Notes under the pieces: generated by a model
Database searches by the model: none
What the model was told of the DNA's origin: nothing
The model's input: only the letters and a program-made list of their open reading frames with translations
Shown here: positions 27,437 to 44,491 of the stretch, piece by piece
How positions within the stretch are numbered: position 1 is the stretch's first letter
Layout of the letters: the number at the start of each line of letters is the position of its first letter
Made by a program: the position numbers and the translations under genes
Assembly: GCF_029029525.1 (NCBI RefSeq)
Contig: NZ_JAKJSC010000001.1
Span: 744,001 to 808,000, forward strand
DNA: 64,000 bases
Direction: 5' to 3'
DNA from: Labilibaculum sp. DW002
GTDB taxonomy: Bacteria; Bacteroidota; Bacteroidia; Bacteroidales; Marinifilaceae

Positions 27437-28021
27437 CTATTTATTGTCCTGTGAGAATTTACGCCCCGCATGAAGAGCATCGATGTTCATTTTAACAACA
27501 TCCTCACCTTTTCTACCAAAAATCTTACGAATACCTTCTTCTAAATACTCAAAAGGCACATCAATAAATGGAGAAGCTGCACCTAACATGACGAAGTTGA
27601 AAGCTCTTGTAGAACCTGTTACTTCTTTTGCAATCTCATCAGCATCAATCAATACATAGTTTGGAAGAGCCTCAATCGTCTTTACCAACTCTTCTTCATT
27701 TGGATAATTAGGAATGTTGATGAAAGGAGATGAATTTGCTACCACATAACCACCTTTTTTAAGGAATGGCAAATAGCGCAATGCCTCCATTGGCTCCACT
27801 GACAAAATAATATCAGCGCCACCTTTAGGAATTAAATCTGAATAAATAGGTTTATCAGAAATTCTCATGAATGACTGAACATCACCACCACGCTGACTCA
27901 TACCGTGAGTTTCAGCTTGTTTCATGTGTAAATTGTTATCTAAAGCAGCAGATCCTAAGGCAGCAGCAATGGAAAGAATTCCCTGTCCGCCTACACCTGC
28001 AATAACCATATCTGTTTTCAT
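27437..28021 (-). CDS. iorB: Indolepyruvate:ferredoxin oxidoreductase, beta (gamma-domain) subunit
   Basis: The 194-residue protein matches the pyruvate/ketoisovalerate oxidoreductase gamma domain: DMVIAGVGGQGILSIAAALG at the N-terminus binds the substrate/CoA side, and HGMSQRGGDVQSFMR near 39-53 is the typical second block. With IorA it converts aryl-2-oxo acids such as indolepyruvate, with CoA and ferredoxin, to aryl-acetyl-CoA and CO2 in amino-acid fermentation, or the reverse. It lies 37 nt after iorA and is clearly co-transcribed. Confidence 0.93.
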   Translation of the reverse strand: MKTDMVIAGVGGQGILSIAAALGSAALDNNLHMKQAETHGMSQRGGDVQSFMRISDKPIYSDLIPKGGADIILSVEPMEALRYLPFLKKGGYVVANSSPFINIPNYPNEEELVKTIEALPNYVLIDADEIAKEVTGSTRAFNFVMLGAASPFIDVPFEYLEEGIRKIFGRKGEDVVKMNIDALHAGRKFSQDNK

Positions 28022-28058
28022 AATTCTATATTTTTGAATGTTTAGGTTTAAGATTAAA

Positions 28059-29681: not shown

Positions 29682-30153
29682 TTTGTGTATGTTTAACTAT
29701 TTTGTATAATTCTGAATATTTGACAGATAGCACTTATCAATGCTAAAAATCATGTATCTATAAATTATTCAATGATGCACATGTACATCACTTACAATTT
29801 ACTCCAAAAAAAAATATAACGAAAGAAAGATGACCCATATGGATCATGATAAGGAAAGGATATTAAAGTCCTCCGAAGATTTCAAGGTAGCATACAAGGT
29901 AAGCCATCACATAAAACTTAATTGCAAGAAAATCCATTTGTTTACTTAAAAATTGTAATTAAATACAAGTGTTATTCCTAATAATTGTTAGCAATATTAC
30001 CAATATTTGATTTAAAGTCAATAAAATTAAAAGTAAAAACAAGAAGTTTAGAATTATTTCAAATAACGAAAACGGTTGCATAGATTTAACCAAAAAGGCT
30101 TAAACCTTGCTTTTCAGTAGATTGAAAGCACAATACATTACAAAATAGCACTA
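29682..30153 (-). other. Intergenic region between iorA and fetB
   Basis: About 470 AT-rich bases holding the upstream region of iorA and the 3' region of the FetAB operon. A weak hairpin near 30093-30106 with an A-run on the plus side could end the FetB transcript. No credible ORF, RNA or repeat was seen, and I could not place a clear TAnnTTTG promoter. Confidence 0.5.
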
Positions 30154-30948
30154 TTATTTCTTTAAAAATAAATTTGCTTTAATTCGTCCAAAAGAATCAA
30201 AAACGAATCGGTTGGCCAAAAGAATACTCAACATCAAATTCAATGAGCAACCAACAAATATGGCTATCATGATTAGAATTTGGTATTTTATGGCAACAAC
30301 AGGAGAACTACCACCAAGAATCTGACCTGTCATCATACCTGGCAAGGAAATTAGACCAATAACCGACATGGTGGCAATTAAAGGATTTAAACCACTCTTT
30401 ATAGCAGAACGAATAAAAGGTGCAAGAGCATTCTTTTTGCTGTTGCCATTAATTAAAAGGAAGTAATACAATTCCTGTTCTTTACTTAAGCGGGTAAAAT
30501 AATTATTGATTCCAACAATGTTGTGATTTAGAGCATTTCCCAAAACCATTCCCGATATAGGTATGAAGTATCTGGCATCGAATACATAATCCAGTCGAAT
30601 TACAAATCCCAGAAAAAATGTATCTATTATAAGGATGCTAATAAATCCTGATAAGGCAAATGGTAGAATAAAATATCGATAGGCTAAACCTGCCCTTTTA
30701 ATGGTTGTAAAAGTGCCAACAAAAATCATGGAACAAACCCAAATCAAATTCACCCAAGCATTATTCCATTCGAAGATATACTCCAAATAAAAGGCAATTA
30801 AAGAAAGTTGAATCAGCATTCGAATCATCGAGATAACCGTCTCTTTAATAATTTTAACCTTAAAGTAGATAAAGCCTGCAATAGGAATTAGCATCAGTAA
30901 AAACCCCAATGCTAAACTCTCTATACTTATATCAATGATTTCCTTCAT
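30154..30948 (-). CDS. fetB: FetB-type iron export ABC permease (UPF0014)
   Basis: The 264-residue integral membrane protein has about seven hydrophobic helices and the family blocks IPISGMVLGNALN (about 130-142) and ISLPGMMTGQILGG (about 201-214). E. coli FetB (YbbM, about 259 residues) with FetA exports iron and protects against oxidative stress. Its start overlaps the end of the ATPase gene by 4 nt (ATGA type), showing translational coupling. Iron export is inferred from the E. coli pair. Confidence 0.87.
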   Translation of the reverse strand: MKEIIDISIESLALGFLLMLIPIAGFIYFKVKIIKETVISMIRMLIQLSLIAFYLEYIFEWNNAWVNLIWVCSMIFVGTFTTIKRAGLAYRYFILPFALSGFISILIIDTFFLGFVIRLDYVFDARYFIPISGMVLGNALNHNIVGINNYFTRLSKEQELYYFLLINGNSKKNALAPFIRSAIKSGLNPLIATMSVIGLISLPGMMTGQILGGSSPVVAIKYQILIMIAIFVGCSLNLMLSILLANRFVFDSFGRIKANLFLKK

Positions 30949-31541
30949 AGTTTAATCGTTCGATTGCAATAACTAATCCATTTCTCATTATGCGATGTAG
31001 ATATTATTGTAGTATTCTTCAAAGAATCCAAAGTCCGAAATAAAAGATCAATAGAACTATCGTCTAATGCAGAAACGGGTTCATCAAGAAATAAAATAGG
31101 CTTATTGAGACTTAAACATGCGGCCATTACAATTCGCTGCTTTTGACCTCCACTTATTTCGGTAAAGCTATTTTTTTCTCCGCAGTTTAAAACATCCAAT
31201 TGATTCAAAAACATTCGAAAATTTTCCTTTTGATCTTCATTCATTTGAAGCAAGTCAATTAATTCAGATCCAGAATCGACAGGAAGGTTAATGTTCTGAG
31301 GTAACCAAAGCATTCTACTTCTGATCTGTTCTATGTTTTCTCCATTCAATTCCAGCCCGTCTACATGTATTTTTCCAGATTGAGGTATCAAAAATCCCAT
31401 CAGCATTTTTAATAAGGATGACTTTCCCTTACCTGAAGGTCCACTGAAACACATAGATTCCCCTACTTCAAGTTCAAAACTAAGATCCTCACAAATAACT
31501 TGTTGGGGGAAACTTAAATTTATATTCTCACATTTTATCAT
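30945..31541 (-). CDS. fetA: FetA-type ABC transporter ATP-binding protein
   Basis: The frame can be extended to a TTG at 31601, but the ABC fold begins at MIKCENINLSF, so I place the start at the ATG at 31541, giving 198 residues. Walker A is GPSGKGKSS (about 34-42), the Q-loop follows, the signature is ISGGQKQR and Walker B is ILFLDEP. A short ABC ATPase paired with a UPF0014 permease is typical of FetAB. It overlaps fetB by 4 nt. A very short coupling ATPase without any periplasmic binding protein fits an exporter. Confidence 0.87.
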   Translation of the reverse strand: MIKCENINLSFPQQVICEDLSFELEVGESMCFSGPSGKGKSSLLKMLMGFLIPQSGKIHVDGLELNGENIEQIRSRMLWLPQNINLPVDSGSELIDLLQMNEDQKENFRMFLNQLDVLNCGEKNSFTEISGGQKQRIVMAACLSLNKPILFLDEPVSALDDSSIDLLFRTLDSLKNTTIISTSHNEKWISYCNRTIKL

Positions 31542-31798
31542 GACATTCGATCTATACCCTAAAGAAAATAATATTCTTTCAATTCTCGTATCAAATTGCA
31601 ATTCTTTCTTTCGTAATTCATGGTTTAATCAGTCAATCTGCATAATGGGAATATTCTCATTTAATTTACATGTGAAACAATTCACAATACCCCATAACAC
31701 CCTTATTTTAAGTTGACACAGCTCCTATAGAAAGTTTGAGGTGTTGTATAACATATCGACATTTCAATACTAAATGGTATTAAATTTCATTAAAACAT

Positions 31799-31835
31799 TA
31801 CTTTCGCACTTCATATATGTGGATATCTACATATA
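31799..31835 (+). promoter_or_regulatory. Probable promoter and palindromic operator of the sulfur flavoprotein
   Basis: TACTTTCG at 31799-31806 followed by CAC resembles the Bacteroidota -7 element with one mismatch; no good TTTG is seen at -33. Just downstream, 31814-31835 forms a 22-bp inverted repeat centred on GATATC (TATATGT and ACATATA arms) with one mismatched pair. Its place over the likely transcription start suggests a repressor site. Confidence 0.5.
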
Positions 31836-31868
31836 AAGATGATGAATATAACTTTTTGATATTATAAA

Positions 31869-34346
31869 ATGGCAAAATATTTAATCGTTGGAGGTGTGGC
31901 TGGTGGTGCAACAACGGCTGCGCGTTTAAGAAGAATAGACGAATCAGCAGAAATCATCATGTTCGAAAGAGGAGAGCATATTTCCTATGCTAACTGTGGC
32001 TTACCCTACTACGTAGGTGGAGTGATTACAGAACGTGAAAACCTATTACTACAAACTCCAGAGAGTTTTAACAAAAGACTTAATGTTGATGTTAGAATTC
32101 ACAATGAAGTCGTTAGAATCGATCGTGAGAACAAATTGGTAGAAATAAACGATCTTCTAAACAAAACTTCTTATACAGAATCATACGATAAGCTTATCGT
32201 TTCGCCAGGTGCTGAGCCTATTAAACCACCAATCCCGGGTATTAATGATGAAGCCATTTTCACCGTTCGCAATGTAAAAGACACGGATAAGATTAAAGGC
32301 TTTTACGATGAGAAAAAACCTAAGAAGGCCGTTGTAGTTGGCGCAGGGTTTATTGGTCTCGAAATGGCAGAGAATCTTCATCATATGGGTATGATGGTAA
32401 CTATAGTTGAAATGGCTGACCAGGTGATGACACCTCTTGATTATGAAATGGCAGCTGAGGTACACATGCATCTTAAAACTAAAAACGTTGAGTTTTATTT
32501 AAAAGATGGCGTATCTGAATTTAATCGCGAAGGTGATAAACTAAACATCCATTTACAGTCGGGTCGTAAGATAGATGCTGATATGGTTATTCTGTCCATT
32601 GGTGTGCGTCCGGAAACCAAACTAATTAAAGAAGCTGGCCTTGAATTGGCACCAAACGGTGGAATTAAGGTAAACGAATATTTACAAACGAGCGATTCAA
32701 ATGTATATGCCTTAGGTGATGCCATTGCATTTCCTCATCCTATCACAGGAAAATACATGAATGCATATTTGGCTGGTCCTGCAAACAAGCAAGGAAGAAT
32801 ATTGGCCAACAATTTAGTTTTAGGTCACAAGCAAAAATACAAAGGCTCTATTGCAACGGCTATTGCTAAAGTATTTGATATTACTGTAGCCTCAACCGGA
32901 CTTGCTGAGAAAGTTCTTAAAAAAGAAGGCATTAAGTATATTTCAAATATTACACATGGTGCATCGAATGCCGGCTATTATCCGGGAGCCATGCCTACTA
33001 CCATCAAAATCATGTTCGATCCTGAAACAGGCAAATTGTTTGGTGGACAAATCATTGGTTATGTAGGTGTTGATAAGCGTATCGATTTAATTGCAACCGT
33101 ACTCAAAAATAAGGGTAGCATTTACGATCTTCAGGAGATTGAGCATGCCTATGCCCCACCATTCTCATCTGCAAAAGATCCGGTGAACCAAGCAGGTTTT
33201 ACCGCAGGTAATATTATTGAAGGCTTAGTCAATATTATTCATTGGGATGAATTGCACCAACTACACGCACCCAATAACTTTATTTTGGATGTGAGAACGC
33301 CGGATGAGTTTGAGCTTGGACAAATTGAAGGTGCCGTAAATATTGAAGTCGATAAAATTCGTGAACGTATAGACGAAATTCCCAAGGACAAAAAGATTAT
33401 CATTTATTGCGGTGTTGGGCTACGTGGTTACTTTGCTGCCAGAATTCTGATGCAAAGAGGCTTTAAGGATGTTGTAAACCTAAGTGGTGGTTACAAAACT
33501 TACGAGCATGCTACTTGCAAACAAAGCAACGAAGATATTTTTGAGTCGAGTTATATTGCTAACGATGGTCATATCTACCGTGGGAAAGATAAGGATGCCG
33601 AAGACGAGAAAGATATCAAAACCATTGAGATTGATGCTTGTGGTTTGCAATGTCCCGGACCAATTATCAAACTGAAAAAAGAAATTGATAAACTTGAAGA
33701 TGGTCAACGTCTTCGTCAGAAGGTGACTGATGCCGGCTTTACAAAAGATGTGGCATCCTGGTGTAAAATGACAGGAAACAAGCTGATTTCTTGTGATTCA
33801 GAAAAAGGCATTATCTCGGCTGTTATCGAAAAGCAAAGGAAAAATGGTGCAACGACCAATACCAATATCGAATTACCAAAGAACAAAACCATGGTCGTTT
33901 TCTCCGATGATCTGGATCGTGCTTTGGCTTCACTGGTTATTGCAAACGGTGCAGCAGCTACGGGTAGCAAAGTCACCCTGTTCTTCACCTTTTGGGGACT
34001 TAACGTAATTAAGAAAACGGACAAACCTCGTGTTGAGAAAGATCTTATGGGTAAAATGTTCGGTAAAATGATGGCTAGCGATGCTGGTAATCTTAAGCTA
34101 TCGAAGATGAACATGATGGGCATGGGTTCTAAGATGATGAAGAAGAGAATGCTTTCGAAAAAGGTTGATTCTCTTGAGGATCTATTGAAAACTGCTATGG
34201 ACAATGGAGTTGAGATGATCGCCTGCCAAATGTCGATGGATGTGATGGGCGTTGATGCTGCTGAATTGCTTGAAGGTGTAGAAATTGGCGGTGTTGCCAC
34301 TTACCTTGAAGAAGCTGAACAATCAAATATCAACTTGTTCATCTAA
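31869..34346 (+). CDS. CoA-disulfide reductase-like flavoprotein fused to rhodanese, TusA and DsrE domains
   Basis: The 825-residue protein has a pyridine-nucleotide-disulfide oxidoreductase module (about 1-450; FAD site GGVAGGATTAARLRR, reactive Cys43 in YANCGLPYY, NAD site VVGAGFIGLEMAE), a rhodanese domain (about 460-550; Cys514 in YCGVGLRG), a TusA/SirA domain (about 585-655; DACGLQCPGP with Cys591 and Cys595) and a DsrE-like domain (about 665-825; Cys786). All expected persulfide-carrying cysteines are present. Such fusions reduce CoA-disulfides, polysulfides or sulfur and relay sulfane sulfur between domains. A single-gene unit with possible operator upstream and strong terminator downstream. 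Domain calls firm, physiological substrate open. Confidence 0.92.
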   Translation: MAKYLIVGGVAGGATTAARLRRIDESAEIIMFERGEHISYANCGLPYYVGGVITERENLLLQTPESFNKRLNVDVRIHNEVVRIDRENKLVEINDLLNKTSYTESYDKLIVSPGAEPIKPPIPGINDEAIFTVRNVKDTDKIKGFYDEKKPKKAVVVGAGFIGLEMAENLHHMGMMVTIVEMADQVMTPLDYEMAAEVHMHLKTKNVEFYLKDGVSEFNREGDKLNIHLQSGRKIDADMVILSIGVRPETKLIKEAGLELAPNGGIKVNEYLQTSDSNVYALGDAIAFPHPITGKYMNAYLAGPANKQGRILANNLVLGHKQKYKGSIATAIAKVFDITVASTGLAEKVLKKEGIKYISNITHGASNAGYYPGAMPTTIKIMFDPETGKLFGGQIIGYVGVDKRIDLIATVLKNKGSIYDLQEIEHAYAPPFSSAKDPVNQAGFTAGNIIEGLVNIIHWDELHQLHAPNNFILDVRTPDEFELGQIEGAVNIEVDKIRERIDEIPKDKKIIIYCGVGLRGYFAARILMQRGFKDVVNLSGGYKTYEHATCKQSNEDIFESSYIANDGHIYRGKDKDAEDEKDIKTIEIDACGLQCPGPIIKLKKEIDKLEDGQRLRQKVTDAGFTKDVASWCKMTGNKLISCDSEKGIISAVIEKQRKNGATTNTNIELPKNKTMVVFSDDLDRALASLVIANGAAATGSKVTLFFTFWGLNVIKKTDKPRVEKDLMGKMFGKMMASDAGNLKLSKMNMMGMGSKMMKKRMLSKKVDSLEDLLKTAMDNGVEMIACQMSMDVMGVDAAELLEGVEIGGVATYLEEAEQSNINLFI

Positions 34347-34360
34347 ATATTATTAAACAA

Positions 34361-34402
34361 AAAGAAGGGCTGTTTCATAATTTGAAACAGCCCTTCTCTT
34401 TG
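34361..34402. terminator. Terminator of the sulfur flavoprotein gene
   Basis: Fifteen-bp perfect stem (34363-34377 with 34383-34397, loop 5 nt), preceded by A residues and followed by CTTTG rather than a pure T-run. Strong stem 15 nt after the stop codon. Confidence 0.8.
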
Positions 34403-34827
34403 TATTAAATTAAATTTCACAACTCAATCCTAAGTTTTTTAAAATGAGATATTATCCGTTTGATTATCATTACTTAAACAAATCAATTTAATTTTTGCTC
34501 AAGCCAATAAATCATTCTTTTTTTCTGGACTTTAGTGTGTTTTTTTTGTAATTTGAGTATTACCATTTTTTAAGAGTTATTCGAAATATTTTGAACTGAT
34601 CCCCACCCTCTCCAATTCTAACAATTTTTTAAAATATTATAGTTTCAATTGCCTTCAACCTTAATCGGAAATCTCAAAACTCAACTTGGTAATTGATAAC
34701 ATGTTTTAGTGCAAATCTAATATTTCTCTCAAACCAAGGAGAATTATTAGTGGTTAGTGGTTAACCGAAATAGCAGAGTTTTTCCAGTCCCTTTTTTGAA
34801 AAGTTCTGCTATTTCTTTTTTAACAAT
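34403..34827. other. Intergenic region with an unassigned plus-strand hairpin
   Basis: About 425 AT-rich bases with no convincing gene. It contains an 11-bp perfect stem (34767-34777 with 34805-34815) followed by six T residues on the plus strand, although no plus-strand gene precedes it except one that already has a terminator. A short tandem AGTGGTT repeat and GGTTAACC palindrome lie just before the stem (34749-34766). Confidence 0.5.
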
Positions 34828-36978
34828 TCATTTCTTCCCAATTAACAAGGCTATAAGTAAGGCTCGTTCAATTAAGCTGTGTCGCAAAATATACTCTGAC
34901 TTTTGCTTATCAAAACCTCCAATCGGTCCCAATCCATCAATTTTAGGAATATGCTGATCGATATTGCAAATATCTGCAGAACTCCATCGATGTTCTGGTA
35001 AAACCCTTGCATCAATAGAGTTAGCAATCGACTTCACCCTATCGAATAAATCATTATTAAGTGTTGAATCAACCATTGGAGGTCGCATTACACCACCCTC
35101 AAATTGAGTCTGAAACATTCGATTTTTACTCCTTGGTATCGCAACAAGTTTCTTAATTTTTGTTTCTGCTTGTTGAAATTCTTCCATGGAATTAAATCGT
35201 ACACTAATCTTGGATGATCCGTATGCTTGAACTTTAAAAATATTCGATTTAAATTCGGACTGATAGGGTGCGATTACATTTTCTGGATTATTTTTACTTA
35301 AATCAACTATAGAAGCAATTGTTTTAAAGAAAAATTGGGATACCGTTGTCACATTCTCTGCAGCACTAGCATCTATCAACTTAATATCATACGAAAAAGA
35401 TGCCGATCCTGAACGTGAGGTGATTACAGTTCCTTCCGCTCCTCCTCCATGCATACTTAAAACTTCTTTTGCATTATTTGCTTTTTCACGAATAATATTC
35501 TTCGAGAATTTACCACTTATTGATGAATCAGTAATCAGCAATATTCCAACTTTTGTTTTGCGAATTAATTTAGAAAAACGAAGAGCTTGCAATGCTGAAA
35601 TACATGCTACAATTCCTCCTTTATTTTCCCAAACACCTGTTCCATAAAGATGGTGTTCTGTTTCTTGATAGCTCTCATGTTTTGGCATTGTAAGAAAATC
35701 ATCGACAGGCAAGAGCAAAAGATAATCAAGTTTTTCATCAAATGAATTTGAAAGGTACATCATATTCCCAACTTCAAACTGCGGAAATATTTCGTTCGTA
35801 AACCCTAACTGAGTAAGCTCTTCCTTTATAATATTTGTGCACTTGTTTACTCCTTCAATATTTCTAACGTGAGAATCGATATTGACCAGCTTCTCGAGTA
35901 ATTTTTCTGAATTTTGCTGTCTGCTTCTCAAAAAAGAACGCAATCGACTATTGAATGAGAGTTTTTTATGCTTTTCTCCTGGTAGTTCAGACATCAAACT
36001 ATTTGAAAAATAACGAACAGCTGCAACATCCAACATTTTATTAACCAGCTTAGGAAAATCATAACCCGCTACCTTTGCTGCTGTTGGATAGGAACCCGTT
36101 TCTCCCATACTAGCCATTGAATTGATTTCTAATAAGTAGATATTGTTATTTTCATCCATTCTAATATCAACTCTTGCAAAATCTCTTAATTGAAGAGCTT
36201 TAAAAGCTTCAATACTTTGACGCACCATTTCGTTTGTCACCTCTTTGGGTAAATCGGCAGGGCAAATTTTTCTTTTAGGAGCCTCTTTTTTATCAGTTAC
36301 CGTTTGTATGGCATCTGGATCATTGTTTAAATCAATTTCCAGAATAGGAAAAGTCTCAACCGGCTCATTGCCTAGAATTCCAACGCAAAACTCTCTTCCT
36401 CTAATAAATTGTTCTGCTAGCGCTTGTTGTTGAAATTCTTTTACAATAAAGTTTACAGATTCTCTAAGATCCTCTTCATTATAAACGACCTTTAATCCAA
36501 ATGAAACACTTTCCATTTTAGGTTTCACAATCACTGGAAACTTAACCACACTCAAATCTTCTTCAGGCGTATTAAATACCCAAAAGTCTGGCGTTGGCAA
36601 ATTGTTATTTTTCCAAATAACTTTCGTCAAAACTTTATCCAATGCAAGCGCATGTCCTGATGGAGAAGAACCTACATAAGGTATTCCCAGCATTTCAAGC
36701 ATTGATGGAATATGAGTGTAACGACTTTCTCCTTGGATACCATAAGCCATATTGAAAACCATTCCCATCTGTTCGCCATCAACGACTTTGGGCATAAAAT
36801 TTTCTAAGCGCTCTATAATTTGCTTGTTTCCATCAAGAATCGCAACATTATGCCCAGCTTTTTCAAGACTTTGGGCTACTTTTTTTACTGTTGCCTCATT
36901 ATAAAACTCCTTATTTTGCATTCCAAAAGTATTTATTACTCCATGAATGTCTTTGTTATAAATCAATGCTATTTTCAC
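34828..36978 (-). CDS. ATP-grasp (D-Ala-D-Ala ligase-like) enzyme fused to a degenerate M20 peptidase-like domain
   Basis: Residues 1-325 of 716 are an ATP-grasp ligase of the D-Ala-D-Ala-ligase type: Lys-bearing VIVKPKMESVSFG (149-161), grasp-loop acids AEQFIRGREF (188-197), metal site ARVDIRMDENNNIYLLEINSM (268-288). Residues about 345-716 match the M20/CPG2 fold, but the metal ligands are changed: HxD is PVDD (Pro424), the Asp of the second motif is Glu451 in VWENKGG, the catalytic Glu pair is TDSSISG (485-486), and the last His is Asp in GPIGGFDKQKSEYI. It therefore looks like an amide ligase with a non-hydrolytic peptide- or amino-acid-binding domain. It follows a class I glutamine amidotransferase by 66 nt. 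Product unknown. Confidence 0.85.
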   Translation of the reverse strand: MKIALIYNKDIHGVINTFGMQNKEFYNEATVKKVAQSLEKAGHNVAILDGNKQIIERLENFMPKVVDGEQMGMVFNMAYGIQGESRYTHIPSMLEMLGIPYVGSSPSGHALALDKVLTKVIWKNNNLPTPDFWVFNTPEEDLSVVKFPVIVKPKMESVSFGLKVVYNEEDLRESVNFIVKEFQQQALAEQFIRGREFCVGILGNEPVETFPILEIDLNNDPDAIQTVTDKKEAPKRKICPADLPKEVTNEMVRQSIEAFKALQLRDFARVDIRMDENNNIYLLEINSMASMGETGSYPTAAKVAGYDFPKLVNKMLDVAAVRYFSNSLMSELPGEKHKKLSFNSRLRSFLRSRQQNSEKLLEKLVNIDSHVRNIEGVNKCTNIIKEELTQLGFTNEIFPQFEVGNMMYLSNSFDEKLDYLLLLPVDDFLTMPKHESYQETEHHLYGTGVWENKGGIVACISALQALRFSKLIRKTKVGILLITDSSISGKFSKNIIREKANNAKEVLSMHGGGAEGTVITSRSGSASFSYDIKLIDASAAENVTTVSQFFFKTIASIVDLSKNNPENVIAPYQSEFKSNIFKVQAYGSSKISVRFNSMEEFQQAETKIKKLVAIPRSKNRMFQTQFEGGVMRPPMVDSTLNNDLFDRVKSIANSIDARVLPEHRWSSADICNIDQHIPKIDGLGPIGGFDKQKSEYILRHSLIERALLIALLIGKK

Positions 36979-37044
36979 TTGATATACTTATAATTGTTAT
37001 GACCTAACTTTTAAATTATCGTAATTCCAATACGATCCAAACTG

Positions 37045-37620
37045 CTAAATAATTTTGCAAATTCGGAGAAAATTCTCTACCATCATCATTCCGTCTTTAC
37101 CCGAAACCTCAGGATGAGATTGAAAACCATAAATCGGTTTGCTCTTATGTTTTATGATTTCGTTCGAACAAGTATCTGAACCAGCTAAGCTTTCAAACTG
37201 TTCTGGAAGTTCTGAAACATGAAAAGAATGCCGTTTAACCAAATTCACTTGCGCAGTATCTAGTCCGTTAAATATTGGATCATCAGATTTAGTAATGGTG
37301 ATGATTTCCTTTTTTGCATGATACTCAGGAAGTTTTTTAATTCTTCCGCGATAACTAACCGCAATAATTTCGTGTCCAAGACAAAAGCCCAATACAGGAA
37401 CATCAAAATTCATTAAGGCAACATAATTTGAGGTCAGATTTAATGGTTCATATGGATTCCCTTTCCCTCCAGATAATATTATTCCTTTTATCTTGGATTT
37501 AGCCGACAGCGTAATGGGTTGATTGTGGTCAAAAAATACATAATCAAAATCTTGTTCCGACAAGTATTGTCTCTTAAATTTTTTAATAAACGCACTCTGA
37601 TTATCAATTATCAGTAACAT
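37045..37620 (-). CDS. Class I glutamine amidotransferase-like protein
   Basis: The 191-residue protein is a stand-alone class I GATase: nucleophile elbow GFCLGHE (Cys near 79), oxyanion strand ILSGGKGNP near 49, and catalytic His-Glu in GFQSHPEVSG near 165-174. It resembles the amidotransferase half of GMP synthase, without a synthetase domain. Such domains supply ammonia from glutamine or hydrolyse gamma-glutamyl bonds. It is the first gene of a two-gene unit with the ATP-grasp/M20 fusion, separated from the polyamine operon by a terminator. A joint role in making an amide is an inference. Confidence 0.87.
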   Translation of the reverse strand: MLLIIDNQSAFIKKFKRQYLSEQDFDYVFFDHNQPITLSAKSKIKGIILSGGKGNPYEPLNLTSNYVALMNFDVPVLGFCLGHEIIAVSYRGRIKKLPEYHAKKEIITITKSDDPIFNGLDTAQVNLVKRHSFHVSELPEQFESLAGSDTCSNEIIKHKSKPIYGFQSHPEVSGKDGMMMVENFLRICKII

Positions 37621-37677
37621 ATCGATACATTTAAAACTGTTTGAAAAATTTAAACTTTAACACTGATAAGAAGGTAC

Positions 37678-37715
37678 AAAAAAGGCAACAAAATCATTCC
37701 TTTGATTTTCTTGCC
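37678..37715 (-). terminator. Terminator ending the polyamine operon
   Basis: On the minus strand a 13-bp stem with one mismatch (37703-37715 with 37684-37696, loop 6 nt) is followed by six T residues. It lies about 43 nt after the stop of the acidic protein gene and separates the speA-speB-DHS unit from the GATase/ATP-grasp pair. Confidence 0.8.
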
Positions 37716-37757
37716 CTTCTAATCCTTTAATTGATGTACTATGTAGTAATTACGGGC

Positions 37758-38096
37758 CTAATCATCATCGTCCTCATCATCTTCTGAGAATAAATAATCT
37801 ACATCAGCATACTTATCTTCATATTTTTCACGTCTATTTGAGAGCAAAACACCATCCTCATCATAATCAGAATCTTCCTCGATAAGTTCCAAAGCCTTAC
37901 GAATTGACATTCTAACCATGTAAATTTTTTCATCAGTTTCGAATGGAAGAGCACTAACCAGTTCTCCTTTCGAATTTGTAAATTCGATCAAATTATCAAT
38001 ATAGCCATCAGGATAATATAATTTTAATTGCTCCTGTATTTCTAGAGTGAGCTTTTCGTAATTCTGAATTACTTTGGGTTTTGAAATTTGAGTCAT
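37758..38096 (-). CDS. Small acidic protein at the end of the polyamine operon
   Basis: A 112-residue protein with a globular part to about residue 80 and a highly acidic tail (YADVDYLFSEDDEDDDD). No signal peptide or known motif was recognised. It starts 41 nt after the deoxyhypusine-synthase-like gene and is followed by a terminator, so it is the last gene of that operon. An acidic protein could bind polyamines or a basic partner, but this is speculation. Confidence 0.7.
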   Translation of the reverse strand: MTQISKPKVIQNYEKLTLEIQEQLKLYYPDGYIDNLIEFTNSKGELVSALPFETDEKIYMVRMSIRKALELIEEDSDYDEDGVLLSNRREKYEDKYADVDYLFSEDDEDDDD

Positions 38097-38137
38097 GATT
38101 ATTAATTATTAGAAATTAAGGCATAAATCTTAATAAA

Positions 38138-39115
38138 CTACCAGCCTAATAAATAGGCAAAAATTAAAGGAACGACTATTGTTGCATCAGATTCTATAAC
38201 AAATTTTGGCGTATCAATTCCTAATTTACCCCAAGTGATTTTCTCATTAGGTACAGCACCTGAATACGATCCATAACTGGTTGTTGAATCAGAAATTTGA
38301 CAGAAGTAACTCCAGAATGGCGTATCGCTCCTTTCCATATCCTGATAAAGCATTGGTACAACACATATTGGGAAATCACCTGCAATACCACCACCAATCT
38401 GGAAGAATCCGATTCCTTTGTCTTCGGCATTTTCAGTATACCAATCGGCCAACCATGTCATATATTCAATTCCTGACTTCATAGTTGATGCCTTAAGTTC
38501 TCCTTTAATGCAATATGATGCGAATATATTACCCATTGTAGAATCTTCCCAACCAGGTACTACAATTGGTAAGTTTTTCTTTGCTGCTTCTAGCATCCAA
38601 CTATTTTTTGGATCTATTTCATAGTATTGCTCCAAAACACCTGATAGGAGAAGTTTGTACATAAACTCGTGTGGAAAATAGCGTTCTCCATTCTTTTCGG
38701 CTTTTTTCCAAATATCAAAAATATGCTTCTGTAAGCGGCGGAATGCTTCTTCCTCTGGAATACAAGTGTCGGTAACACGGTTCAACCCACGCTCTAAAAG
38801 CCTCCATTCATCCTGAGGTGTCAAATCTCTGTAATGCGGTACTCTCTCGTAATGCGAATGAGCAACCAAATTCATAATGTCTTCTTCCAGATTTGCGCCA
38901 GTACAGGTGATGATTTGCACCTTATCCTGACGAATCATTTCTGCTAATGATCGTCCTATTTCTGCTGTACTCATTGCACCAGCAAGAGTAATCATCATTT
39001 TCTTCCCTTCAGCAAGATGTTTTTCGTAAGCCTGAGCCGCATCTATAAGAGTTGCCGAATTAAAATGACGATAATGCTCTAAAATGAATTTTGAAACAGA
39101 TCCTTTATTTTCCAT
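38138..39115 (-). CDS. Deoxyhypusine synthase-like polyamine aminobutyltransferase
   Basis: The 325-residue protein follows the deoxyhypusine synthase fold: NAD-binding blocks ITLAGAMSTAEIGRS (about 42-56), IITCTGANLEEDI (about 68-80) and VPGWEDSTMGN (about 187-197), and the catalytic lysine in ITWGKLG (Lys297), equivalent to Lys329 of human DHS. Bacteria have no eIF5A, so the acceptor cannot be the eukaryotic one; DHS-like proteins elsewhere act as homospermidine synthases. Its start overlaps the end of speB by 11 nt, and the operon makes putrescine, so a spermidine/putrescine aminobutyl transfer is the best guess. Confidence 0.87.
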   Translation of the reverse strand: MENKGSVSKFILEHYRHFNSATLIDAAQAYEKHLAEGKKMMITLAGAMSTAEIGRSLAEMIRQDKVQIITCTGANLEEDIMNLVAHSHYERVPHYRDLTPQDEWRLLERGLNRVTDTCIPEEEAFRRLQKHIFDIWKKAEKNGERYFPHEFMYKLLLSGVLEQYYEIDPKNSWMLEAAKKNLPIVVPGWEDSTMGNIFASYCIKGELKASTMKSGIEYMTWLADWYTENAEDKGIGFFQIGGGIAGDFPICVVPMLYQDMERSDTPFWSYFCQISDSTTSYGSYSGAVPNEKITWGKLGIDTPKFVIESDATIVVPLIFAYLLGW

Positions 39116-39959
39116 GATTTTCGAATTTGTAGCTTAAAAGCTTATAATACAATTTGGCAGTCAAAAAATCCGAGGCTTTTTGCCCTTCTTGTGGTGCCAA
39201 CTCCACAATATCAAAACCCACAACATTTTTGTTGCGGAATACTTGACGTAAATACGCAATAACGGTATACCAATCCAACCCTCCGGGTTCTGGAGTTCCC
39301 GTGGATGGCATAATCGATGGATCAAAAACATCCAAATCAATAGTGACATAAACATGATTGGTCATCCTATTCAAGGAAGCATCCATCCAACCCATTTTGC
39401 GATGAATATCCTCAGCCAGAAAACATTTGTCCCGATTTAAATAAGGCAATTCACAGCTATCCATACTGCGGATTCCCACCTGAATTAAATTGGTGTTCTT
39501 ACTCGCGTTGTGCAATGCACATGCATGATTGCATTTTGATCCATCGTATTCCGATCTCAAATCTGCGTGAGCATCTAACTGCAAAACCGTTAGATTTTTG
39601 TACCTCTCATAAAAAGCCTTGATAATACCAATGCTTACAGAATGTTCTCCACCAAAAAAAGTGGGGAATTTCCCTGTTTTTAAAATATCATTGCTTTTTT
39701 GATAGACCATGGAACACATCGATTCTGGTGAAGACGATTCCTTAATATCAGGTAAAATGTGAACCCCTGTTTTGTATACCTCCGAATCAGTCTCAATATC
39801 GTACAACTCCATGTTTTCCAATGCTCTTAAAAAAGCAGGGAATGCTTTATCTGCTCCTTTACCCCAAGTGCTTGTTCCATCATAAGGAATGGATTGCAAA
39901 AGAGTGGCAGCATCTTCAAACGAGCAATACTCATCTTCTATTCCTGCAAAATTTCTCAT
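39105..39959 (-). CDS. speB: Agmatinase
   Basis: The 284-residue ureohydrolase has all manganese ligands: GGEHS (His106), DAHAD (Asp129, His131, Asp133) and TIDLDVFDPS near 204-213. Agmatinase splits agmatine into putrescine and urea; arginase is the alternative, but the gene follows an arginine decarboxylase with a 4-nt overlap, which favours agmatine. It overlaps the DHS-like gene by 11 nt, so the three genes are tightly coupled. Confidence 0.9.
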   Translation of the reverse strand: MRNFAGIEDEYCSFEDAATLLQSIPYDGTSTWGKGADKAFPAFLRALENMELYDIETDSEVYKTGVHILPDIKESSSPESMCSMVYQKSNDILKTGKFPTFFGGEHSVSIGIIKAFYERYKNLTVLQLDAHADLRSEYDGSKCNHACALHNASKNTNLIQVGIRSMDSCELPYLNRDKCFLAEDIHRKMGWMDASLNRMTNHVYVTIDLDVFDPSIMPSTGTPEPGGLDWYTVIAYLRQVFRNKNVVGFDIVELAPQEGQKASDFLTAKLYYKLLSYKFENHGK

Positions 39960-41365
39960 TTTTTCTTGTATCCTAACAGTTTAAACATTTCATCGGCTGA
40001 TTGTTCATTTCTATACACGTAGTCGAAAAAATTACCCTTTTCATCCCTATCAATTATAACGTGCTTTGGAGATGGTATTAAGCAGTGCTTGATCCCGCCA
40101 TATCCACTAATGGAATCCTGATAGGCTCCCGTATGAAAAAATCCAACATACAAAGGTTCTTTTTCCTCTCTTGAATAATCAGGTAGTAAGACTTCTTGAT
40201 TTAAGTCTTCAGAGTTATAATAGTCGGAGTGATCACAACTAATGCCACCAATGTTTACACGCTTATATTCATTTTTCCATTTATTAATTGGTAGTAAAAT
40301 AAATTTTTCATGAATAGACCAGGCATCAGGTATCGTATTCATTAGACTGTTGTCAATAATATACCACGACTCCGTATCGTTTTGCTGTTTTTGTTCTAAA
40401 ACTTTAAAAATAATAGCTCCGCTTTCTCCAACCGTGTATTTGCCAAACTCGGTATAAATATTGGGTTCAGGAATATTTTCCGCTTCGCATGCATTTTTAA
40501 TGTTTGAAACAATTTCATTGATCATATAATCATAATTGTATTCAAAGCCTAAGTTGTTTCTAATGGGAAAACCACCACCTAAATTGAATGAATCCAGGGT
40601 ATCACTCTCTTTCTTCAATTCAGTATATACCTTTAACGCCTTTTGAAATTCTCCCCAATAGTAAAGGCTATCCTTAATTCCTGAATCCACAAAAAAATGT
40701 AGCATTTTCAATTCAAATTTAGGATTGTCTTTAATTTTTGTTTTATAGAATTCAATTATTTCTGAATGACTAATGCCTAATCTTGATGTATAATAAGCCG
40801 ATTGGGGTTCTTCATTAATTGCCATCCTTAAACCAACTTTCACCACTTGATCTTTCACAATATTTTCTAGTCGATCCAATTCTTTCACGCTATCAAAAAT
40901 GATGATACTATTTGTAAAGCCAAACTCCTGCATGGCAAGAATTCGTCTCAAATAGTCATCCGTTTTGTAACCATTGTGTACAATGATCCTGTCCTTTTCA
41001 ATTTTATTCTCTTTATAGAGGTTTAATATTAAATCGATATCAAACGACGATGAGGTTTCTAAATTGACATTATGCTTTAATGCTTCTCCAATTACATGTG
41101 CAAAATGATTACATTTTGTGCAATAACAATAATGATACTTACCATTATAGTTGTTTTTCTTTATGGCTCGATTAAAAAGATTACGAGCTTTTTTTATCTG
41201 ATCTCCAATTTTAGGCAAGTAGAAGAAACGGAAAGGAGTACCGTGTTTTTCAATTAGATATTTTAAAGAGATACCTTGAAAGGTTAGAAAGTCATCTCTT
41301 AAATCAAAGCCTTCCTGAGGGAAGTAGTAGCTTTGCTCGATCAAATCAAAATAAGTATTTTTCAT
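39956..41365 (-). CDS. speA: Bacteroidota-type biosynthetic arginine decarboxylase
   Basis: The 469-residue fold-III PLP enzyme has the cofactor lysine in YCYCTKCNHFAHV (Lys84), a glycine-rich phosphate site NLGGGFPIRN and the substrate-side motif GFFHTGAYQDSISGYGG. The first residues (SYYFPQEGFDLRDDFLTFQG) and the length match the short arginine decarboxylases of Bacteroidota rather than the 630-660-residue enterobacterial SpeA. It makes agmatine from arginine for the downstream agmatinase. First gene of a four-gene operon; the preceding small gene is separated by a terminator. Confidence 0.9.
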   Translation of the reverse strand: MKNTYFDLIEQSYYFPQEGFDLRDDFLTFQGISLKYLIEKHGTPFRFFYLPKIGDQIKKARNLFNRAIKKNNYNGKYHYCYCTKCNHFAHVIGEALKHNVNLETSSSFDIDLILNLYKENKIEKDRIIVHNGYKTDDYLRRILAMQEFGFTNSIIIFDSVKELDRLENIVKDQVVKVGLRMAINEEPQSAYYTSRLGISHSEIIEFYKTKIKDNPKFELKMLHFFVDSGIKDSLYYWGEFQKALKVYTELKKESDTLDSFNLGGGFPIRNNLGFEYNYDYMINEIVSNIKNACEAENIPEPNIYTEFGKYTVGESGAIIFKVLEQKQQNDTESWYIIDNSLMNTIPDAWSIHEKFILLPINKWKNEYKRVNIGGISCDHSDYYNSEDLNQEVLLPDYSREEKEPLYVGFFHTGAYQDSISGYGGIKHCLIPSPKHVIIDRDEKGNFFDYVYRNEQSADEMFKLLGYKKK

Positions 41366-41450
41366 TTATAAAACCATATAAGATAAATGTTGTTTTAATC
41401 TGCGTTTTTTTTGCAAATAAAAACATTTTTTCAATTCAAAATACATTTAC

Positions 41451-41484
41451 GAAAAAAAAATGCATCAAAAAGATGCATTTTTTT
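41451..41484. terminator. Terminator downstream of the small membrane protein gene
   Basis: Perfect 13-bp stem (41454-41466 with 41472-41484, loop AAAAA) with A- and T-runs on both sides, so active in either direction. It lies about 77 nt past the stop of the minus-strand gene at 41561 and upstream of speA. Confidence 0.85.
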
Positions 41485-41560
41485 CAACCGATGACATTCA
41501 ATCCCTTATAAACTCTATGATTCAACCTCCATGTACGTTCCATGGCCTTATGTTATTTTA

Positions 41561-41815
41561 TTATTCACCCTTTTCTTCAATCTTATTATCAATATATTCT
41601 TCTTCCAAGTTCTCTTCCTTTGATTTTCGAAGACGTAAATAAACCAAACCCATAACACTTAAAAAGCCAATCACCTTAACATATTGCTTAAATATCGCTC
41701 TTGATTGAGCTGTCCAGTCTTCTGTCAATTCTGGAATCCCATTTACAACTAATACGGTACAAATAGAAATCAGTAAAATAAATAGTAAGAGGATTGTAAT
41801 TGTTTTCTTATTCAT
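41561..41815 (-). CDS. Small two-helix membrane protein
   Basis: The 84-residue product has two hydrophobic helices (about 5-26 and 46-63) and an acidic C-terminal tail (KSKEENLEEEYIDNK). No family recognised. It is followed by a clear terminator and preceded by a 222-nt gap shared with the divergent acetyl-CoA synthetase gene. The membrane-helix pattern and terminator support a real gene. Confidence 0.6.
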   Translation of the reverse strand: MNKKTITILLLFILLISICTVLVVNGIPELTEDWTAQSRAIFKQYVKVIGFLSVMGLVYLRLRKSKEENLEEEYIDNKIEEKGE

Positions 41816-42037
41816 AAAATTTAAAATAGTAAGAATTATTTGATGTTAAAATAAATCCAAAAGGATCTTTTTGAACTGACAAGGTAAGCAAATCTATTAC
41901 GAAAATCATCTCATATTTTTACAATCCATCTATTAATCTGACTGATTATTACTGCTTCTTATTTTATTTTTTCATGAATGCAGAATTTCATATATTGAGA
42001 TATCTAGATTTAAACTATTAACCAAAATAGATAACAC

Positions 42038-43951
42038 ATGATTGATAAGATTAGTACTCTTGGTGGTTATATCCATGAATATCAAAAGAGTGTCGAGAAT
42101 CCAGAAGCTTTTTGGAGTCGAATTGCAGAAAGTTTTTTTTGGAGAAAAAAATGGGATAAGGTATTGGATTGGAATTTTTCGGAACCTCGAATCAATTGGT
42201 TTGTTAACGGAAAAATGAACATTACCGAAAACATTTTTGAAAGACACCTATTTACTCGTGGAAATCAGCCAGCAATCATCTGGGAACCAAATGATCCTAA
42301 AGATGAAAATAGAGTATTAACTTATTCTGAATTATTTGAAGAAGTTCAAAAATTTGCCAATGTCTTGCTTGAATTGGGCATAAAAAAAGGAGATCGAATC
42401 GCAATTTATATGCCTATGATTCCTGAATTGGCAATTGCTATGTTAGGCTGTGCAAGAATTGGAGCAATTCATTCCATCGTATTTGCGGGTTTTTCATCGA
42501 ATTCTTTAGCGGATCGAATTAAAGATGCTGAAGCCAAATTGGTAATCACATCGGACGGAGGATATCGAGGCAATAAAACAATCCCAATTAAAGATATTGT
42601 TGACGAAGCTGTAGCAACTTGTCCTACAATTGAAAAGGTAATTGTTGTTCAACGTACCAATACGAAGATTGCTTTTAATGATAAAATCGACCTGTGGTGG
42701 CACGAATGCATGGCCAATGCTGAAGAAGTAAATCAAGCTGAGTTAATGGATGCTGAAGATAATTTGTTCATCCTTTATACTTCAGGTTCTACTGATAAGC
42801 CAAAAGGTATTGTGCACACATGCGGAGGTTACATGGTTTATTCAGCTTATACTTTCAAAAATGTTTTTCAATACAGCGATGGAGACATTTATTTTTGCTC
42901 TGCTGATATTGGTTGGATCACTGGTCATTCCTATATTGTTTATGGTCCTTTATTAAATGGTGCAACAACAATGATGTTTGAAGGAATACCAACCTATCCT
43001 GATGCTGGAAGATACTGGGATATCGTAAATAAATACGAGGTTGCCCAATTTTATACTGCTCCTACTGCCATTCGTTCTTTAATGTCGATGGGACAAGAAT
43101 ACGTCGAAAATAAAGATCTTTCCTCATTAAAGGTCTTGGGAACTGTTGGAGAACCAATTAACGAAGAAGCCTGGCACTGGTATCACGATCATGTTGGAAA
43201 AAATCGTTGCCCAATTGTAGATACTTGGTGGCAGACCGAAACTGGTGGAATTTCCATTAGCCCTATTGCAGGAATTATTCCTACCAAACCAGGATTTGCA
43301 ACTTTACCTCAGCCAGGAATTCAACCTATTATTGTTGATGGCGAAGGGAAAGAATTGTCTGGGAAAAGTGTTGAAGGAAATTTATGTATCAAATACCCAT
43401 GGCCTGGCATGCTTCGAACCATTTGGGGAGATCATGAACGATTCAAGAAAACCTACTTTAGCACCTTCGACAATTTATACTTCTCGGGAGATGGAGTAAA
43501 GCGTGATGAAGATGGCTATTATCGCATTTTAGGAAGAGTTGATGATGTGATTAACGTATCTGGGCATCGAATGGGAACGGCAGAAGTAGAAAATGCCATT
43601 AATGAGCATCCATTGGTAAATGAATCGGCTGTTGTAGGCTTTCCACACGATATTAAAGGTCAAGGAATTTATGCCTTCGTAGTTTGTGGAGAATTATCAA
43701 CTGGTGGCGCAGAAGGCATCAAAACAAGTATCCGTAAAGGTGTTACCAAAATAATTGGCCCTATTGCGAAGCCAGACAAAATACTCTTGGTAAAAGGATT
43801 ACCGAAAACCAGATCGGGTAAAATAATGCGACGAATATTAAGGAAAATTGCCCAAGGAGACTTCGATAACTTTGGAGACATATCTACCCTATTAGACACC
43901 TCAGTGGTAGAAGAAATAATTAACGGCGCATTAGAAGATGTGAAACAATAG
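42038..43951 (+). CDS. acs: Acetyl-CoA synthetase (AMP-forming)
   Basis: The 637-residue protein has the full Acs layout: N-terminal cap, ATP/AMP loop [11 protein letters not shown] (Asp where Gly is usual), [10 protein letters not shown], the hinge region [20 protein letters not shown] and the acetylatable catalytic lysine in TRSGKIMRR (Lys595). It activates acetate (or propionate) to acyl-CoA. A SatP-type acetate transporter is encoded 8 kb away. Single-gene unit with its own terminator. The signature-loop Asp is unlikely to abolish activity but is worth noting. Confidence 0.92.
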
Positions 43952-43957
43952 AAAATT

Positions 43958-43988
43958 AAAAGCTTATCAATAGGATAAGCTTTTTTTC
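43958..43988 (+). terminator. Terminator of acs
   Basis: Eleven-bp stem (43958-43968 with 43974-43984, loop 5 nt) running into a T-run, 6 nt after the stop codon. Confidence 0.88.
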
Positions 43989-44063
43989 ATGACCTTTCAC
44001 CTCTAATAATAGCAAATCAAATTACAATTGATTATTTTGAAATACAAAGCAAAATAAATACAA

Positions 44064-44438
44064 ATGAAAAAAGAATTTCTGGGTTTAAGAACAACCGTTT
44101 ATAAAGTGAACGATTTAAAAAAGGCAAAAGAATGGTATGAGAAAGCATTCAATACTCAAGCCTATTTTAACGAAGATTTTTACGTTGGATTTACTATTGG
44201 TGGATACGAATTAGGCTTATTGCCTGATCCTAATTCATCGATAGCTAAAACCGAGAATGTTGTTGCCTATTGGGGAGTTGACGATATAAACGAAAGCTAC
44301 GAAAGACTAATTAAAGCTGGAGCAATTGCAAACGAAAAACCTGAAAATGTTGGTGGAGAACTTTGGGTAGCCAGTGTTAAAGATCCTTGGGAAAACGTAA
44401 TTGGAATTATTTACAATCCTCATTTTAAACTACCATAA
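44064..44438 (+). CDS. VOC (glyoxalase/bleomycin resistance) family protein
   Basis: A 124-residue protein with the paired beta-alpha-beta-beta-beta modules of the vicinal-oxygen-chelate fold (LRTTVYKVNDLKKAKEWYEKAF at the start; VAYWGVDDINESYERLIKAGA in the second half; DPWENVIGIIYNPHF at the end). The usual first metal-ligand His is not evident (TVYKVND), so metal binding may be absent or altered. Substrate unknown. Monocistronic between two terminators. Confidence 0.85.
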   Translation: MKKEFLGLRTTVYKVNDLKKAKEWYEKAFNTQAYFNEDFYVGFTIGGYELGLLPDPNSSIAKTENVVAYWGVDDINESYERLIKAGAIANEKPENVGGELWVASVKDPWENVIGIIYNPHFKLP

Positions 44439-44458
44439 TAAACTAAAATACAAGCAAT

Positions 44459-44489: not shown

Positions 44490-44491
44490 TA

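What the first reader, a model, noticed from the sequence alone, without database searches (positions are those of the whole stretch)
34828..37620. ATP-grasp ligase fused to a dead M20 peptidase, paired with a glutamine amidotransferase
The ATP-grasp half keeps its nucleotide and metal residues. The M20 half has lost almost every catalytic or metal residue (His to Pro424, Asp to Glu451, Glu-Glu to Ser-Ser 485-486, final His to Asp) yet keeps the fold-specific blocks. An upstream GATase has its full Cys/His/Glu set. This suggests amide or peptide formation with a dedicated binding domain; ATP-grasp plus amidotransferase plus peptidase-like sets are known in peptide-tag and small-molecule synthesis, but I know no described system of this form.
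Basis: partly seen in the sequence, partly recalled or inferred. Interest (0 to 1): 0.68.

Follow-up and report, generated by a model that had tools for sequence, protein, structure and literature searches.

The report
Amide ligase with a dead peptidase
Some marine Bacteroidales and a few relatives carry a conserved, apparently undescribed gene pair, an ATP-using ligase fused to a peptidase that has lost its metal site plus a glutamine amidotransferase, often near pressure-valve channel or polyamine genes, so it may build a protective small molecule.

Summary
Window 34828-36978 (-) encodes a 716-aa protein: a Ddl-type ATP-grasp half with conserved catalytic residues and a CPG2-like M20 half without a metal site. 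37045-37620 (-) is a class I GATase with its Cys/His/Glu. This is not local decay: in 29 of 29 fusions the M20 site is gone (two keep one of six residues) while fold and a new set of invariant residues remain; seven stand-alone M20 relatives that I aligned are intact. The GATase lies within 10 kb in 26 of 29 loci, and in one family both genes are present in 8 of 56 genomes and neither in 48. Every GATase aligned has GxCLGxE where GMP synthase subunit A has GxCLGHQ. An MscS channel gene lies within 3 kb in 12 of 29 loci, polyamine genes within 10 kb in 12 of 29. Best reading (0.4): an amide-forming ligase whose dead peptidase holds the substrate, serving osmotic/cation homeostasis; like the N-acetylglutaminylglutamine-amide system in logic, but not a member (its marker is below cut-off in 15 of 15 genomes). 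No activity, substrate or product is shown. The paper searches listed in the report showed no description of it.

The parts
34828..36978 (-). Fusion protein: Ddl-type ATP-grasp ligase (residues 1-~320) + CPG2-like M20 domain without metal site (residues ~345-716)
34837..35934 (-). pseudo-M20 half (residues 349-714): M20 fold kept, metal and base residues lost; invariant G404 N405, D426, W450 E451, R522 S523 G524, N579, R594, H663 R664 W665, D681
36013..36978 (-). ATP-grasp half (residues 1-322): K115, K152, E189, R269, D271, E284, N286 invariant in 29 of 29 and aligned with the same residue of a Ddl structure (5d8d)
37045..37620 (-). class I glutamine amidotransferase (GuaA subunit A-like), Cys80/His169/Glu171; GxCLG[HF]E instead of GxCLGHQ
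37758..38096 (-). 112-aa protein without a Pfam or NCBIfam match; a relative lies within 10 kb of the fusion in 10 of 29 loci
38138..39115 (-). deoxyhypusine-synthase-like (perhaps a homospermidine-type synthase), linked context gene
39105..39959 (-). agmatinase (TIGR01230 above cut-off), linked context gene
39956..41365 (-). PLP decarboxylase of the SpeA/LysA superfamily (arginine decarboxylase by context only), linked context gene

Best explanation
The pair is a small-molecule amide synthetase. The ATP-grasp half phosphorylates a carboxylate with ATP (inferred from conserved Ddl catalytic residues). The fused M20 domain no longer hydrolyses anything but still binds an amino-acid or dipeptide-like ligand and presents or senses it (inferred). 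The class I GATase supplies ammonia from glutamine or from a related gamma-glutamyl donor (inferred), so the product would be a carboxamide-capped amino-acid, dipeptide or polyamine-derived solute. It serves osmotic/cation homeostasis: made or controlled together with polyamine synthesis in some lineages, with MscS channels as release valves in others (inferred from gene linkage). Shown: anatomy, family-wide loss of the M20 metal site, kept fold, constraint, co-inheritance with the GATase, linkage to MscS and polyamine genes. Not shown: any activity, substrate or product.
For: ATP-grasp residues K115, K152, E189, R269, D271, E284, N286 identical in 29 of 29 and in Ddl 5d8d. GATase triad invariant in 22 of 22 rows. 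GATase within 10 kb in 26 of 29 loci, 25 within 3 kb. In the family both genes are in 8 of 56 genomes and neither in 48. M20 fold Z 33.1/32.8 to CPG2 with the metal site lost in 29 of 29, but N579 and R594, which align with the N-V-[IV]-P-type Asn and D-x-R Arg of intact M20s, invariant. dN/dS of the M20 half 0.02-0.07 in 7 of 9 pairs, the other two not computable. MscS within 3 kb in 12 of 29 loci, in 9 of them same-strand with a gap of at most 97 bp. Among 14 fusion genomes 6 have an MscS within 3 kb (counted by hand from positions) against about 0.9% expected each, binomial 1.5e-9 (relatedness not corrected). AGCS carrier gene 8 bp upstream in L101; a gene matching K-Cl cotransporters below cut-off within 4 kb in L102. 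At least one of decarboxylase, agmatinase and DHS-like gene within 10 kb in 12 of 29 loci.
Against: In L100 (G415) and L101 (G111) no GATase lies in the 5-9 kb held on each side of the fusion, and neither genome is among the 6 with a GATase match in a sample of 386 (that output does not show whether both were in the sample). The GATase has Glu84 where GMP synthase subunit A has Gln, so glutaminase activity is uncertain. MscS was not found within 10 kb in 16 of 29 loci, the window included, where the nearest is about 100 kb away; in several of these less than 10 kb was held on a side. The DHS-like gene also occurs in 14 of 48 family genomes without the fusion. In three Carboxylicivirga loci (L038, L040, L048) an IMPDH/GMP-reductase-type gene lies upstream of the GATase, which an osmotic reading does not explain. 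The ATP-grasp half is modelled with low confidence.
Confidence: 0.4

Rival explanations
1. Polyamine conjugation: the ATP-grasp joins a carboxylate (amino acid, dipeptide, gamma-glutamyl compound) to agmatine, putrescine or homospermidine made by the neighbouring decarboxylase, agmatinase and DHS-like enzymes, as glutathionylspermidine synthetase does; the pseudo-M20 is a remnant of a synthetase/amidase architecture and the GATase acts on gamma-glutamyl groups.
For: A polyamine gene lies within 10 kb in 12 of 29 loci (DHS-like 11, decarboxylase 11, agmatinase 10), in several families, including a locus with DHS 27 bp from the fusion and one with the decarboxylase alone (L043, L037). All 8 fusion-bearing genomes of the family have the DHS-like gene against 14 of 48 without the fusion (hypergeometric 2.3e-4, relatedness not corrected). 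Clusters of homospermidine synthase with glutathionylspermidine synthetase are reported in a phage and in beta-Proteobacteria (PMC9992855, passages).
Against: No polyamine gene was seen near the fusion in 17 of 29 loci, for example the Carboxylicivirga loci, where GATase and fusion stay together. The ATP-grasp is Ddl-type: the 25 shown of its 52 NCBIfam matches are Ddl-type ligase models plus two M20 hydrolase models.
Confidence: 0.25
2. Make-and-break pair: the ATP-grasp makes a gamma-glutamyl or other amide, and the GATase-like protein is not an ammonia donor but a hydrolase that removes the gamma-glutamyl group (PuuA/PuuD logic, recalled).
For: Glu84 replaces the usual Gln in 22 of 22 rows; second Pfam match is Peptidase_C26, E 4.7e-6; gamma-glutamyl peptidase 1 is among the PDB hits; the closest unfused ATP-grasp (41% identity, L093/L130) overlaps a gene that reads like a gamma-glutamyltranspeptidase (recognised by eye, not scanned).
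Against: Sequence is much closer to GMP synthase subunit A (1.9e-29) than to gamma-glutamyl peptidase 1 (1.3e-6).
Confidence: 0.15
3. A cell-wall enzyme: a D-Ala-D-Xaa ligase variant whose product is amidated.
For: Ddl-type ATP-grasp.
Against: Below the curated cut-off of every D-Ala-D-Ala, D-lactate and D-serine ligase model among the 25 NCBIfam matches shown. The own genome has a separate 325-aa ORF matching residues 75-300 at 27% identity, by length a Ddl candidate (not scanned), and similar ORFs recur in the family. No cell-wall genes were recognised by eye beside it, though most neighbours were not scanned.
Confidence: 0.07
4. The M20 half is a purely structural or regulatory domain (dimerisation, allosteric sensor) with no part in substrate presentation (can hold together with any of the above).
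For: Metal site and the AHSG/AHAG-type His segment of intact relatives are gone; the M20 half is less conserved than the ATP-grasp half in 8 of 9 pairs compared.
Against: A set of polar residues is invariant across 29 sequences, including the Asn and Arg that align with carboxylate-binding residues of intact M20s (role recalled).
Confidence: 0.2

Closest known systems
N-acetylglutaminylglutamine amide (NAGGN) system: AsnO amidotransferase + Ngg (GNAT/ATP-grasp) + M42 peptidase (protein types and M42 partner recalled; Sagot 2010 is not held; asnO and ngg as NAGGN genes seen in a passage of PMC8146288)
   Same: ATP-grasp ligase, amidotransferase and peptidase-like protein together, osmotic theme; a GNAT-nitrilase fusion is within 10 kb in 6 of 29 loci
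   Different: Amidotransferase is class I (GuaA-like) instead of asparagine-synthase type; ATP-grasp is Ddl-type and not fused to GNAT; peptidase-like part is a fused M20 without metal site; TIGR03104 above cut-off in 0 of 15 fusion genomes
D-alanine-D-alanine ligase (Ddl)
   Same: ATP-grasp fold by sequence and seven aligned catalytic-type residues
   Different: below curated cut-offs, fused to M20, paired with a GATase
Carboxypeptidase G2 / M20 peptidases
   Same: fold (Z 33) and sequence profile (8.1e-16)
   Different: metal ligands and catalytic Glu lost as a set
GMP synthase subunit A (GuaA-A)
   Same: closest class I GATase by sequence
   Different: 114 bits against a 198-bit cut-off, Glu for Gln in the nucleophile motif; no PP-ATPase partner was recognised next to it, by eye
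Glutathionylspermidine synthetase/amidase
   Same: ATP-grasp ligase joined to a hydrolase-type domain (recalled), polyamine gene context (hss-gss clusters in passages of PMC9992855)
   Different: other ATP-grasp family, other hydrolase fold, hydrolase site dead
Carbamoyl-phosphate synthetase
   Same: ATP-grasp ligase working with a class I GATase (recalled)
   Different: small Ddl-type ATP-grasp; GATase only distantly similar (3.7e-8)

Membership tests
Ddl-type ATP-grasp ligases | Dala_Dala_lig_C domain above Pfam cut-off | tested here: met
   121.5 bits against 24
Ddl-type ATP-grasp ligases | conserved ATP/Mg and acyl-phosphate residues | tested here: met
   K115, K152, E189, R269, D271, E284, N286 in 29 of 29, aligned with the same residues of Ddl 5d8d; roles recalled
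D-alanine-D-alanine ligase (function) | score above curated D-Ala-D-Ala ligase cut-offs | tested here: not met
   best 181 of 243 bits
M20 metallopeptidase (fold) | M20 fold | tested here: met
   Z 33.1, 354 residues, rmsd 4.2 to CPG2; Peptidase_M20 28.1 bits, cut-off 24.6
M20 metallopeptidase (active enzyme) | di-metal ligands and catalytic Glu | tested here: not met
   no member keeps more than one of six canonical residues, 27 of 29 keep none
Class I glutamine amidotransferase | Cys-His-Glu triad | tested here: met
   C80, H169, E171 invariant in 22 rows
Class I glutamine amidotransferase | Gln in the GxCxGxQ nucleophile motif (motif recalled) | tested here: not met
   Glu84 in 22 of 22 rows; the aligned GMP synthase subunit A has Gln
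Class I glutamine amidotransferase | glutaminase activity, ammonia transfer to partner | not testable with these tools
   needs assay
GMP synthase subunit A | score above NF001975 cut-off | tested here: not met
   113.7 of 198 bits
NAGGN system | asparagine-synthase-type amidotransferase TIGR03104 above cut-off in the genome | tested here: not met
   0 of 15 genomes (best 363 of 570 bits; none of the 14 control genomes is above cut-off either, so there was no positive control)
NAGGN system | osmotically induced peptide-amide product | not testable with these tools
   needs metabolite analysis
Glutathionylspermidine synthetase | GSP_synth ATP-grasp plus CHAP amidase (names recalled) | tested here: not met
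   the Pfam matches are five: four ATP-grasp-type models and Peptidase_M20

The most novel reading that the evidence does not exclude
A new route to a peptide- or polyamine-derived amide used as a compatible solute in marine Bacteroidota, in which a dead M20 peptidase has become the substrate-holding domain of an ATP-grasp ligase and a class I GATase with an altered nucleophile motif feeds it, with release through linked MscS channels.
Probability: 0.3. Interest if true: 0.72.

Novelty: new variant of a known kind. Interest (0 to 1): 0.52.

Why it matters
If true, it adds an amide-synthesis module to the few known ways by which bacteria make osmoprotective or polyamine-derived solutes, and it is a clear case of a peptidase recruited as a binding domain of a ligase. 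It gives a concrete, small system (two proteins, cultured genera among the hosts) in which substrate and product can be looked for directly.

Tried and rejected
Local decay of the M20 site: rejected, loss is in 29 of 29 members and the M20 half is constrained. Hydrolase activity kept with other metal ligands: not supported, at the six positions only Glu451 is an invariant acidic residue or His. Membership in NAGGN: not met. Ancestral unfused operon: looked for beside stand-alone M20 relatives (9 M20 ORFs found in 10 stretches, no ATP-grasp of the family recognised beside any; one stretch, L143, has an MscS-like gene about 7 kb away; in L150 the M20 ORF was not recovered) and beside the closest unfused ATP-grasp (L093/L130, no M20 or GATase gene seen). 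Intact relatives: 7 ORFs aligned out of 10 loci examined; the phylum search gave 21 genomes besides the two with the fusion. Tandem Ddl-like ATP-grasps next to GNAT and lysine-2,3-aminomutase-type genes were at first taken as a sister system; they are 28-34% identical and are kept as a lead, not as evidence. Promoters and terminators: no more sites than in shuffles. Structure: the whole-chain model is poor in the ATP-grasp half (mean pLDDT 56 over all), so only residues 340-716 were tested by fold search; nothing is claimed for the ATP-grasp half from it. Own genome: no second match to the M20 half at E <= 0.001. Literature: searches showed no description of this fusion; these are listings, several capped (for example 20 of 31 papers, 15 of 593, 8 of 28), and passages of PMC8146288, PMC11129491, PMC5760507, PMC9992855. 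A search joining the fusion with mechanosensitive channels failed on its wording.
Full report
OBSERVATION. The window lies in a 5.4-Mb genome whose same-species relative G050 appears to be the record Labilibaculum sp. MAG11 (same 77,977-base contig). It has at 34828-36978 (-) a 716-aa ORF and at 37045-37620 (-) a 191-aa ORF, 66 bp apart. The first matches Dala_Dala_lig_C (4.5e-35, residues 122-316) and Peptidase_M20 (2.2e-6, 437-713); the second matches class I GATase (4.7e-27). By NCBIfam they score under curated cut-offs for D-Ala-D-Ala ligase (181 of 243 bits) and GMP synthase subunit A (114 of 198).

M20 HALF. A profile of 22 M20 halves finds only carboxypeptidase G2 in the PDB at E <= 0.001 (8.1e-16). 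The AlphaFold model is usable for this half only; it matches CPG2 at Z 33 over 354 residues. Counted over 29 distinct full-length fusions: position 424 (His112) P 20, S 5, V 3, N 1; 451 (Asp141) E 29; 485 (Glu175) S 20, N 5, T 2, D 1, E 1; 486 (Glu176) S 18, T 5, A 4, I 1, N 1; 510 (Glu200) S 16, H 12, G 1; 691 (last His) P 16, K 8, five others, one of them His. 27 of 29 keep none of the six canonical residues and two keep one (L102 E485, L098 H691). Invariant instead: G404, N405, D426, W450, E451, R522-S523-G524, N579, R594, H663-R664-W665, S667, D681 (29 of 29 each); D669 in 28. Seven stand-alone M20 relatives (of 10 loci examined) have the intact residues. So a working M20 was probably captured, lost its metal site and was then kept: dN/dS for the M20 half is 0.02-0.07 in 7 of 9 pairs (two pairs not computable).

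LIGASE HALF. K115, K152, E189, R269, D271, E284 and N286 are identical in 29 of 29 and align with the same residues of the Ddl structure 5d8d (roles recalled). The own genome has a separate 325-aa ORF matching residues 75-300, by length a Ddl candidate.

GATASE. C80, H169, E171 are invariant in 22 aligned rows (GATases of L036, L040, L124, L125 and L126 were not in that alignment, L040 was). The Gln of GxCLGHQ in GMP synthase subunit A (alignment) is Glu in all rows. I recall a Glu at this place in human gamma-glutamyl hydrolase; that was not checked. This leaves ammonia donor and gamma-glutamyl hydrolase both open.

DISTRIBUTION. Full-length fusions: 8 of 56 genomes of the family; 20 loci in the named genome collection (Marinifilum, Ancylomarina, Carboxylicivirga, Draconibacterium, Saccharicrinis, Labilibacter, Plebeiobacterium, a Labilibaculum MAG and others); 7 full-length among the 10 of 393 genomes of the order with a match at 1e-40; in the phylum sample of 395 the window's own plus G786, while the other 66 of 68 genomes match essentially the ATP-grasp half only. 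GATase at 1e-40: 8 of 56 family genomes, the same 8 that have the fusion; 6 of 386 in the order, of which G072 also has an M20 piece cut by a contig end. G415 and G111 have the fusion and are not among these 6, but the output does not show whether both were among the 386.

CONTEXT. For 29 loci: GATase within 3 kb in 25, within 10 kb in 26 (missing in L043, a 5.6-kb contig, L100, L101). MscS within 3 kb in 12, within 10 kb in 13; in nine loci MscS is on the same strand with a gap of at most 97 bp. DHS-like within 10 kb in 11, decarboxylase in 11, agmatinase in 10, at least one of the three in 12; the 112-aa protein in 10, CorA in 6, GNAT-nitrilase in 6. Flank lengths differ and short contigs count as misses. 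Among 14 fusion genomes with 73 MscS genes the chance of one within 3 kb is about 0.9% per genome; 6 of 14 have one by my count from the positions (1.5e-9 if independent, which they are not). An AGCS carrier gene (above cut-off) lies 8 bp from the fusion in L101 and a gene matching K-Cl cotransporters (below cut-off) within 4 kb in L102. Gene order changes between lineages while links stay. Against a purely osmotic reading: the window itself has the polyamine genes but no MscS within about 100 kb, and in L038, L040 and L048 an IMPDH/GMP-reductase-type gene lies upstream of the GATase.

HOW IT MAY WORK. Shown: anatomy, loss of the metal site, fold, constraint, partnership, linkage. Inferred: acyl-phosphate chemistry, ligand binding by the dead M20, ammonia feeding, osmotic or cation role. 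I put 0.4 on the amide synthetase in osmotic/cation homeostasis, 0.25 on polyamine conjugation, 0.15 on a ligase/gamma-glutamyl-hydrolase pair, 0.07 on a cell-wall enzyme; the structural-domain reading of the M20 half can overlap with each.

KNOWN SYSTEMS. The nearest in logic is NAGGN synthesis, but its amidotransferase marker TIGR03104 is above cut-off in 0 of 15 fusion genomes (best 363 of 570 bits; no control genome was above it either) and the protein families differ. hss-gss clusters are a polyamine parallel (PMC9992855, passages). No paper describing the fusion was seen in searches (open-licence PubMed Central only, listings partly capped).

MOSAIC. Against its same-species genome (L034) the window locus alternates between 98-100% and lower identity; three stretches, 36.2-36.5, 38.0-39.2 and 39.8-40.7 kb, are 73-83% identical to L034 and 100% (300-bp bins) to Ancylomarina sp. 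DW003 (L046). This is recombination or a chimeric assembly; it does not touch the family-wide conclusions.

Loci without polyamine genes corrected from 16 to 17 of 29; the claim that two genomes lack the GATase softened; S296 dropped from the aligned catalytic residues; the GMP-reductase neighbour and the missing positive control added.

Noticed in passing
window 28000-46000, clearest at 36200-36500, 38000-39200, 39800-40700: Mosaic: at the three places named 73-83% identical to the same-species genome L034 but 100% (300-bp bins) to Ancylomarina sp. DW003 (L046), with 98-100% identity to L034 in other stretches; recombination tracts or assembly chimera.
   Followed up: partly
   Followed up: partly
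L093 7922-10592 (same contig as L130): Closest unfused ATP-grasp (41% identity) overlaps a gene that reads like a gamma-glutamyltranspeptidase, recognised by eye.
   Followed up: no
L038 8002-9039, L040 7997-9034, L048 6708-7745: IMPDH/GMP-reductase-type gene 0.3-1.6 kb upstream of the GATase in three Carboxylicivirga loci (L038 copy scanned; others by clustering).
   Followed up: no
window 37758-38096: 112-aa protein with an acidic end and no known family; follows the DHS-like gene, and relatives lie near the fusion in L099 and L101.
   Followed up: no
window 38138-41365: Decarboxylase-agmatinase-DHS-like operon; decarboxylase and DHS-like protein score far below curated equivalog cut-offs, so the polyamine made is not certain.
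   Followed up: partly
L037 6996-8516, L052 3223-4762, L099 1124-2656: GNAT-nitrilase gene (two ORFs in L052) beside the GATase or the ligase fusion; in L037 the nitrilase part is nearest to N-carbamoylputrescine amidase but far below cut-off.
   Followed up: no
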